NCBI GenBank assembly: GCA_015272515.1
Contig: JACYLN010000007.1
Location: forward strand, 1 to 64,000
Direction of reading: 5' to 3'
Origin: Leptolyngbyaceae cyanobacterium C42_A2020_001
GTDB lineage: Bacteria; Cyanobacteriota; Cyanobacteriia; Leptolyngbyales; Leptolyngbyaceae
Length of the DNA stretch: 64,000 bases
The notes beneath the pieces were generated by a model. It worked only from the letters and a program-made list of their open reading frames with translations, made no database searches and had not been told where the DNA came from. The first letter of the stretch is position 1; each line of letters begins with the position of its first letter. A program made the translations under genes and the position numbers. Shown here in pieces: positions 36,897 through 39,553 of the stretch.

Positions 36897-37334
36897 TTAC
36901 AGAACCTCAATTGCAATTGAGCTTGATGGGTTCGGTTTGAGGAAGACGAAAAGTGGACTTTTTGTGTCTTTCCATTCTTCTACCGCCGATCGCAGGATGT
37001 TGATCAGAACCGACCAATCGGCTGGATAGGCTGCTGCAAAGCGCTCTGGATGGAGGTACAGCAACACGTATCCGTTCGCAGGTAGCCACTCCAGGTCTGT
37101 AAGGCACTCTTCAAAGGCATCCCAATTCGCCCCAAAATAATCGGGAAAGCTCATCACTTGGGCGCTTTCTTGAAGAAAATCAGGCTTGCTGGCAATGCGA
37201 TCGCCCTGAATCACAAATAGTTTGAGGTGGCGTTCTTCACAGGCAGTCATGAGTTCATCCAGCACTACATCGCCTGTGACAGTGTAGATTCCAGGTTCGC
37301 GATCGCCTTGAAGCGTAGCAAGAATATCGTTCAT
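36897..37334 (-). CDS. Barstar family RNase inhibitor
   Basis: 145 residues. The barstar core is clear: FPDYFGANWDAFEECLTDLEWL near residues 63-84, with an N-terminal extension of about 30 residues and the VLLYLHPERFAA strand. Barstar blocks barnase/RNase Sa-type enzymes by covering their active site. It starts 15 bases after the RNase gene at 37350 on the same strand, so this is the likely cognate immunity protein. Confidence 0.9.
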   Translation of the reverse strand: MNDILATLQGDREPGIYTVTGDVVLDELMTACEERHLKLFVIQGDRIASKPDFLQESAQVMSFPDYFGANWDAFEECLTDLEWLPANGYVLLYLHPERFAAAYPADWSVLINILRSAVEEWKDTKSPLFVFLKPNPSSSIAIEVL

Positions 37335-37349
37335 GCTGATGCCGGAGAA

Positions 37350-37808
37350 CTAAAGTTTAACCCTGACAAAACTACCGTAATGATCGCCCGTGTAGTAATA
37401 GATTTCGTTCGCTCCACCAACCACTAAACGGCGTGCTCCCCGGTTGAAAGCTCCCGGTGTGGGTACTGTGTACTCACGGTAGTAACCTCGTGAAGCAGCG
37501 GGCAATCGGTGCTCTCGATTCCCAAACACGGTGCCATCCTTGCGGTAAGGGAAGGGTCCGCCTTGTTGAATTAATCGCACTGTTTTCAAAACTTCGGGTG
37601 GCAGTTGGGTAATGGAAACAGTACGAATTGAGCTTTGACGGGCAATTTCGAGTTTGGCAGGCTGGAGCAATGGTTGAGCGATCGCGTTGCTCAGGGTTGG
37701 GATGCTGCCAAGTAACGCTAGATTTGCCGCAGCCAACACCAGCGTTTTCCTCAACACTTGCCTCACTCGCACAATAACCCCGCAATTTCTAAACCTTGAC
37801 TTCCGCAT
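37350..37808 (-). CDS. Secreted guanyl-specific ribonuclease, RNase Sa type
   Basis: 152 residues. Residues 1-44 form a signal peptide (LVLAAANLALLGSIPTLSNAIAQ). The mature domain closely follows Streptomyces RNase Sa: LPPEVLKTVRLIQQGGPFPY, DGTVFGNRE, GYYREYTVPTPGAFNRGARR, YYYTGDHYGSF. By comparison the catalytic base is E112, the phosphate-binding arginines are in R123-R127 and the acid is H143, all present. The RNase Sa cysteines are absent. The gene overlaps the 3' end of the HD protein by 20 bases and is followed by barstar. Confidence 0.92.
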   Translation of the reverse strand: MRKSRFRNCGVIVRVRQVLRKTLVLAAANLALLGSIPTLSNAIAQPLLQPAKLEIARQSSIRTVSITQLPPEVLKTVRLIQQGGPFPYRKDGTVFGNREHRLPAASRGYYREYTVPTPGAFNRGARRLVVGGANEIYYYTGDHYGSFVRVKL

Positions 37809-39189
37809 TCATGCGTCCTGCCATCGCATTTTTGCGGTATTCAAACACCTGCAACACGGCGCGAATGATGGTGTCAACCACATCGCGATCGCACAGCGCC
37901 AAAAACTCTTCTGCCGACACGCTCCGCTTAAAAAACTCCTTCGCCTGGAGCAGTAACCGACGGGCTTCTGAAAAGCCAATGGATTTGATGATGAAAGTCG
38001 CCACTGGCGAATTCTTCACATCATAGCTAGAAGATTTGGTGCGTCCTTTCTCCAGCAGTTCCAATACTTCCTGCTCTACAGCATTTGCAGGTGGAATCGA
38101 CACGTCGATATTCGGCAAAAAATTCTCAAGCTGCGCCACTGGCAGTCCCCGTCCCGGCAATTCACCCATCATGGTTGCCAGGGGGATATCCTGCCCAATT
38201 CGTTGAGAGAGAGCTTCAATTACGGCGATCGACAGCAGCTTACTACCCAAATATAGCCGAGCCACTTCCAGGTTCTTTTGGGTGCGGCAAATCAACGATT
38301 GATAAAGTTCTGGTGCAGGTTCATCCTGATAGCGTTGAAACACCAGTTCTGGCTTGAGGAAGTTCATGAAGCCTTCCATTTTTTGCAGAGACAGCCGATA
38401 CCCCGACACCGTGTAAGCATTGGCACTGGTGAGGTCGTGGTTAGTTTCTGGCATCAGATTCCAGGTATTGTCTAAAAACTCAGCCGAGGCTTCGTAGGCA
38501 AAGTTTTCAATATCTCGATTTGCAAGGCGAATTGCCCGCTTCACGATCGCGTGGATGTCTGCTTCAGTCCACCCTAGCTCAAAGTTATGATTGACCTGCG
38601 ATAAACGCCCAAACAAGCGATCGCCCACAGATTGTCCACTTTCTGAAGGAGGGCGGAAAGGAATTGTCGCTTCAATACAGGCGACAATTTGAGCAATGAT
38701 GGCGGGCGGAAGCGCGTGTTCCAAACTTTTCGCCGCAATCACAGCACTTAAAAACTCATTTTGTCCGGCAGTAGGCAGCAGCGTTTGCCCCGGTGTAAAG
38801 CCAAAAATTTGAGACACCATCTCAAACAGGGGATCATTGGGCAACTGCCAGCGCTCCAGAATCACGAGTTGTCCACCAATTTCCTTAACAAAAGGCGCAA
38901 CATAGCGGCTGGTGTTAACGCTCACAACCTGATCCACCTGCACGTACACCAAGTCGTGAAACAGTGCCGATAACACCTCGATCGCATCCCCCGACTCACC
39001 CACCTCAAAGATGTGTTCCGGCGTGTGAAAATACCGCCAGGGACCTGACATCGTTTGAATGATCAGTTCTGCCGTCATCGAAATTTGAGCGGGATCGGCT
39101 TTGCCGCCGAGTTGCTCAATTGCGTGGTTGAGTTCGTCAAAACAACGCTCATAATCTTGTCCAAAGCCCTGTTCCGGTCCTTGCCGCAT
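37789..39189 (-). CDS. HD-domain-like protein upstream of RNase/barstar
   Basis: About 466 residues from the ATG at 39189, supported by GGAG eight bases upstream; the frame extends to a TTG at 39288. WRYFHTPEHIFEV...LSALFHDLVY gives two histidines and an HD pair that fit a metal-binding HD-type phosphohydrolase. The rest is helical, with FAYEASAEFLDNTWNLMPETN and repeated helices at the C-terminus. The family is mostly cyanobacterial; activity is unproven. It is first in a three-gene unit with the RNase and barstar. Confidence 0.7.
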   Translation of the reverse strand: MRQGPEQGFGQDYERCFDELNHAIEQLGGKADPAQISMTAELIIQTMSGPWRYFHTPEHIFEVGESGDAIEVLSALFHDLVYVQVDQVVSVNTSRYVAPFVKEIGGQLVILERWQLPNDPLFEMVSQIFGFTPGQTLLPTAGQNEFLSAVIAAKSLEHALPPAIIAQIVACIEATIPFRPPSESGQSVGDRLFGRLSQVNHNFELGWTEADIHAIVKRAIRLANRDIENFAYEASAEFLDNTWNLMPETNHDLTSANAYTVSGYRLSLQKMEGFMNFLKPELVFQRYQDEPAPELYQSLICRTQKNLEVARLYLGSKLLSIAVIEALSQRIGQDIPLATMMGELPGRGLPVAQLENFLPNIDVSIPPANAVEQEVLELLEKGRTKSSSYDVKNSPVATFIIKSIGFSEARRLLLQAKEFFKRSVSAEEFLALCDRDVVDTIIRAVLQVFEYRKNAMAGRMNAEVKV

Positions 39190-39553
39190 AGCGGTTTCTC
39201 CACTCGTGTTGAGTGCGATGCACTGAGTTTTTTGAATGGTATCAGGAATAGTTCGGAGTTGTGACATGGGTTGATACCATTCCCCCAACGCAACACGACT
39301 CCTATTGAAACTGCTCTACAATCCAGAATGCCCAACCAGGGAACCGACATCTCATTCCTTATCTTACAAAGCTCACCCCGAACGCAGGGAAATTCAATAA
39401 ATTGCAATTCTTTCAGGACACACCCTTCAGCTCAAAGAAAGACGAGACATCATGCCACCAGCTATTGAATTCCGATTTTCTGGCATTTTTCCCAGGCCAA
39501 TGCAGGGATATTAAACGTAACATCCCTACAAACCTGGTAACAGATGGTGAGGC

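What the first reader, a model, noticed from the sequence alone, without database searches (positions are those of the whole stretch)
36897..39189. Barnase-barstar-like operon with an HD protein in a cyanobacterium
A signal-peptide RNase with every catalytic residue of RNase Sa, its barstar directly downstream, and an HD-type protein that overlaps the RNase start by 20 bases. The HD protein is not part of known barnase/barstar pairs, so this could be a new three-part toxin, immunity and nucleotide-sensing module, or chance neighbours. It is my best candidate for an undescribed system.
Basis: partly seen in the sequence, partly recalled or inferred. Interest (0 to 1): 0.8.

Follow-up and report, generated by a model that had tools for sequence, protein, structure and literature searches.

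The report
Ordinary RNase–barstar pair beside HD gene
This is an ordinary secreted RNA-cutting enzyme with its inhibitor gene, which in one small group of cyanobacteria sits behind an unrelated, uncharacterised enzyme gene; the three are not a conserved module, although the third protein is an unnamed family shaped like the cyclic-nucleotide phosphodiesterases of animals and other eukaryotes.

Summary
The genes are real. On the minus strand, barstar (36897-37334) directly follows an RNase Sa-type ribonuclease (37350-37808), which follows an HD-motif protein (37789-39189). The RNase matches RNase Sa at E about 1e-28, with E41, E54, R65, R69 and H85 all present, and keeps a signal-peptide-like N terminus. 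RNase and barstar are adjacent in all 29 cyanobacterial genomes found with the RNase: a standard, already described secreted RNase/immunity pair.

The three-part module is not supported. Of 17 genomes with all three genes, HD is next to the RNase in only 5, all in one clade of one family; in 12 it lies elsewhere. One linked locus was found among 80 named HD loci. The HD gene is more widespread, has its own conserved promoter-like region and occurs mostly without the RNase; 12 genomes have the pair without HD. The 20-base overlap is probably a start-codon artefact: the closest relative has in-frame stops there, and the likely start (GTG 37766) lies 22 bases after the HD stop.

By-product: the HD protein belongs to a cyanobacterial family with no Pfam or NCBIfam model. 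Its AlphaFold model resembles class I cyclic-nucleotide phosphodiesterase catalytic domains (best Z 14.7; top 50 entries all PDEs), without detectable sequence similarity. Its substrate is unknown.

The parts
36897..37334 (-). barstar-family inhibitor (145 aa; barstar domain 38-132, with an N-terminal extension of about 37 aa that relatives share), no signal peptide visible
   Evidence: PF01337 1.5e-28; barstar chains in PDB, best E 5.5e-4; extension shared by relatives
37350..37766 (-). secreted RNase Sa-type guanyl-specific ribonuclease, with its likely GTG start at 37766; the ORF is open from ATG 37808
   Evidence: PF00545 1.4e-23; RNase Sa about 1e-28; catalytic residues and start-codon comparison
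37789..39189 (-). HD-motif protein with a class I PDE-like predicted fold (466 aa); neighbour in this clade only, not a conserved part of the RNase/barstar pair
   Evidence: conserved H55, H59, H78, D79, D226; AlphaFold pLDDT 88 and 91; VIA-align Z up to 14.7 to PDE9/5/2/10; synteny
39190..39280 (-). conserved upstream region of the HD gene: GGTATCAA, about 26 nt, TTCCTGATACCATNCAAAAAACT (extended -10-like TGATACCAT), then AGTGCATCGCACT and a GAGTGGAG ribosome-binding region
   Evidence: alignment of 21 loci, mostly ones in which HD is not next to the RNase; no consensus RNA structure; no Rfam match

Best explanation
A secreted guanyl-specific RNase (RNase Sa type) with its cytoplasmic barstar inhibitor, encoded as an autonomous two-gene unit, lies just downstream of an unrelated, more widespread gene for an HD/PDE-fold enzyme. 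Inferred working: the RNase is made as a precursor, exported by its signal peptide and cleaves RNA outside the cell (nutrient scavenging or harm to competitors), while barstar in the producer's cytoplasm blocks any RNase that folds before export. Adjacency to HD arose in one Leptolyngbya-like clade, probably once, and probably lets the pair be read from the HD promoter there. No functional coupling with HD is needed. Shown: families, catalytic residues, pair conservation, patchy HD linkage. Inferred: export, toxicity, inhibition, co-transcription.
For: RNase and barstar identities, catalytic residues. RNase and barstar adjacent in 29 of 29 cyanobacterial genomes that have the RNase, in several families. 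HD next to the RNase in 5 of 17 genomes with all three (G000, G002, G015, G019, G028), all in one clade that also holds G001 and G011, in which no RNase was found. 12 genomes have the pair without HD and many have HD without the pair. 1 linked locus among 80 HD loci, 67 of which have at least 1 kb downstream. The HD promoter region is conserved whether or not the RNase follows. HD neighbours differ from genus to genus. Simple barnase-barstar pairs are already described, cyanobacteria among the phyla listed for barnase-type toxins and barstar (PMC3482391).
Against: The adjacency has survived in three genera (HD about 72-80% identical between them) with short spacing, which could mean selection. 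Genomes with HD have the RNase somewhat more often than expected (one-sided Fisher p 0.015 within the family, 0.007 in a phylum sample, not corrected for relatedness). Export and inhibition were not tested.
Confidence: 0.87

Rival explanations
1. A clade-specific three-gene operon with real functional coupling: the HD/PDE-fold enzyme processes a nucleotide linked to the RNase, for example the 2',3'-cyclic GMP that RNase Sa-type enzymes release, or tunes expression of the pair.
For: Short spacing in all five linked genomes; linkage kept in three genera; class I PDE-like predicted fold; mild co-occurrence.
Against: Twelve genomes with all three keep them apart; G001 of the same genus keeps HD without the RNase; HD is mostly found with no RNase; HD shows no signal peptide whereas the RNase is predicted to be exported.
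Confidence: 0.08
2. The RNase/barstar pair is a mobile cassette that landed behind the HD gene by chance and spreads horizontally. This differs from the best explanation only in how the pair arrived, and could be true together with it.
For: Patchy distribution: 10 of 386 genomes in the phylum sample; related RNases on plasmids of other phyla.
Against: A compact secreted RNase with no polymorphic-toxin carrier part; no similar DNA on known plasmids; integrases or repeat flanks were not sought in detail.
Confidence: 0.25

Closest known systems
RNase Sa / barnase with barstar (microbial RNase family PF00545 and PF01337)
   Same: Fold family, catalytic residues, signal-peptide-like N terminus, adjacent intracellular-type inhibitor
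   Different: No cysteine in the mature RNase domain, so the Sa disulfide is missing; barstar has an extra N-terminal stretch of about 37 aa and Glu at the position of barstar Asp39
Simple barnase-barstar gene pairs of the toxin-immunity survey PMC3482391 (Tox-Barnase / Imm-Barstar, cyanobacteria included)
   Same: Toxin-then-immunity gene order, same families, same phylum
   Different: Lies behind an HD gene in one clade
Class I cyclic-nucleotide phosphodiesterases (PDEase_I, PF00233)
   Same: Predicted fold of HD residues 8-336 (Z up to 14.7, rmsd about 5, 250 aligned, top 50 entries all PDEs); order of H-x3-H, HD and a late Asp
   Different: About 8-14% identity, no match to PF00233 or PDB sequences, substrate unknown, extra C-terminal region of about 130 aa, all relatives seen are cyanobacterial

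Membership tests
PF00545 guanyl-specific ribonuclease (RNase Sa type) | Profile match above the curated cut-off | tested here: met
   83.7 bits against cut-off 24; RNase Sa about 1e-28
PF00545 guanyl-specific ribonuclease (RNase Sa type) | Catalytic residues E41, E54, R65, R69, H85 | tested here: met
   E99, E112, R123, R127, H143
PF00545 guanyl-specific ribonuclease (RNase Sa type) | Secretion and RNase activity | not testable with these tools
   A signal-peptide-like N terminus ending SNAIA is visible in the sequence; no assay
PF01337 barstar | Profile match above the curated cut-off | tested here: met
   99.1 bits against cut-off 23.4
PF01337 barstar | Binds and inhibits the neighbouring RNase | not testable with these tools
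   Gene adjacency in 29 of 29 genomes is indirect support
HD superfamily | Conserved His ... His-Asp ... Asp metal-binding set | tested here: met
   H55, H59, H78, D79, D226 invariant in 30 sequences; metal binding itself not tested
Class I phosphodiesterase (PF00233) | Sequence profile match | tested here: not met
   No PDEase_I match in any of 30 members, none in 386 genomes (its control was silent too)
Class I phosphodiesterase (PF00233) | Catalytic-domain fold | tested here: met
   Predicted model only: VIA-align Z up to 14.7, rank 50 Z 13.8, all PDEs; Foldseek E 0.11, probability 0.93. Helical proteins can reach such Z by chance
Class I phosphodiesterase (PF00233) | Purine-selecting glutamine and phenylalanine clamp (QxxF) | tested here: inconclusive
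   F274 is invariant but the place of the Gln cannot be fixed without a residue-level superposition
Conserved three-gene module | HD adjacent to RNase/barstar in most genomes that hold all three | tested here: not met
   5 of 17, one clade

The most novel reading that the evidence does not exclude
The HD protein is a bacterial class I PDE-like enzyme that hydrolyses 2',3'-cyclic GMP or another cyclic nucleotide made by RNA cleavage, and in this clade has become coupled with the RNase that makes such products.
Probability: 0.05. Interest if true: 0.7.

Novelty: new member of a known kind. Interest (0 to 1): 0.3.

Why it matters
The pair adds a well-conserved cyanobacterial branch to a textbook RNase/inhibitor system and nothing conceptually new. 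The useful by-product is the HD family: about 300 loci, no family model, and a predicted fold known best from eukaryotic cyclic-nucleotide phosphodiesterases. Cyanobacteria use cAMP and cGMP (general knowledge) and no PF00233 enzyme was found in 386 of their genomes, so a substrate test of this family would be worthwhile on its own.

Tried and rejected
Conserved three-gene module: rejected on synteny. Overlapping, translationally coupled start: rejected by in-frame stops in G002 and by spacers in all linked relatives. Structured RNA leader or riboswitch upstream of HD: Rfam has no match, RNAalifold finds no consensus pair in 21 sequences, and the TGATACCAT element also precedes HD in distant genera, so an extended -10-type promoter is more likely. 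A regulon of the paired GTATCA/TGATACCAT site: searched in six genomes without mismatches, found only at this gene in two of them. A short upstream ORF (MSQLRTIPDTIQKT-stop): present in some relatives, broken in others (seen). Plasmid origin: no similar DNA. Sequence relatives of HD in PDB by profile: none. PDEase_I in cyanobacteria: none found, but the control genomes were silent too.

Full report
Observation. The three ORFs are present in tandem on the minus strand. The RNase (37350-37808) matches PF00545 with E 1.4e-23 and RNase Sa at about 1e-28; the RNase Sa residues E41, E54, R65, R69 and H85 are all kept. Barstar (36897-37334) matches PF01337 with E 1.5e-28 and starts 15 nt after the RNase stop. 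The upstream protein (37789-39189) has no Pfam or NCBIfam match, but H55-x3-H59, H78-D79 and D226 are invariant in 30 relatives.

Overlap. The claimed 20-base overlap requires the RNase to start at ATG 37808. In G002, the nearest relative (HD 95% identical), the same frame carries two stops between the HD end and the signal peptide; in G015, G019 and G028 the RNase starts roughly 17 to 70 nt after HD. The likely start here is GTG 37766, 22 nt after the HD stop, which gives a clean signal-peptide-like sequence and is shared with G002. So there is a short spacer, not an overlap.

Synteny. In 58 relatives, in the whole family (42 genomes) and in an even sample of the phylum (386 genomes), the RNase was found in 29 genomes in all, each time with barstar next to it. 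HD was found in 17 of these 29. In 5 (G000, G002, G015, G019, G028) it is directly upstream of the RNase; in 12 it is elsewhere (G005, G007, G013, G021, G029, G032, G433, G434, G435, G206, G300, G307). In G007 and G300 both lie on one large contig, megabases apart; in G434 and G435 the HD gene is at a contig edge, but the contig with the RNase shows no HD upstream for at least 1.1 kb. Among 80 HD loci from named genomes one is linked (L099, the same contig as in G019); 67 of the 80 have at least 1 kb downstream.

History. In the HD tree the linked genomes fall in one supported group of eight rows (99/94) that also holds G013 (RNase elsewhere), G001 and G011 (no RNase found). One origin of the linkage followed by losses, or more than one origin, both fit. 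In G001, of the same genus, the 598 nt after HD hold no RNase. Co-occurrence of HD and RNase is slightly above chance (p 0.015 in the family, 0.007 in the phylum sample) but relatedness was not corrected for, and three of the four phylum cases are one genus. HD neighbours differ between genera; in this family it mostly lies downstream of the phosphomannomutase/glmM-like gene.

What the pair does. From established knowledge of barnase, binase and RNase Sa, a secreted guanyl-specific RNase with an intracellular barstar protects its producer while RNA outside, or in competitors, is cut. This was not tested here. Simple barnase-barstar pairs are described as widely distributed, and cyanobacteria are among the phyla listed for these toxin and immunity families (PMC3482391).

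What the HD protein is. AlphaFold gives confident models (pLDDT 88 whole, 91 for residues 8-336). Foldseek's hits are weak by E-value but PDE5/6 and PDE2 lead for the core with probabilities 0.93 and 0.82; VIA-align gives Z up to 14.7 over about 250 residues with rmsd about 5, and all 50 listed entries are class I PDE catalytic domains (whole model). The tool warns that helical proteins may reach such values by chance, but the uniform list plus the conserved H-x3-H / HD / late D order argues for a real relation. No sequence similarity to PDEs is detectable. Substrate and role are unknown.

HD promoter. About 90 nt before HD are conserved in 21 loci of the family, linked or not: GGTATCAA, a nearly fixed gap of about 26 nt, TTCCTGATACCATNCA, then GTGCATCGCAC and a ribosome-binding region. 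TTTGATACCATGCA-like sequence also precedes HD in distant genera. No RNA structure is supported, so this looks like a promoter with an operator-like inverted repeat; the exact paired site was found nowhere else in six genomes.

Verdict. RNase/barstar: real, ordinary. Three-part system: not supported. HD family: an unannotated cyanobacterial HD family worth its own study.

Noticed in passing
window 37789-39189 (-); loci L001-L030, L068-L173: An HD-motif protein family, about 300 loci (all those seen cyanobacterial), without Pfam or NCBIfam model, whose predicted fold matches class I cyclic-nucleotide phosphodiesterase catalytic domains.
   Followed up: partly
window 39190-39280 (-); alignment A3: Strongly conserved region upstream of the HD gene with an inverted repeat GGTATCA ... 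TGATACC, one arm of which overlaps an extended -10-like motif; likely a regulated promoter.
   Followed up: partly
window 36897-37334 (-): Barstars of these cyanobacteria share an N-terminal extension of about 37 residues ahead of the barstar domain.
   Followed up: no
G017, G026, G044 (L012, L013, L025, L027): The HD gene match is broken near its 3' end in G017 and G026 (two pieces), and G044 carries several divergent copies.
   Followed up: no
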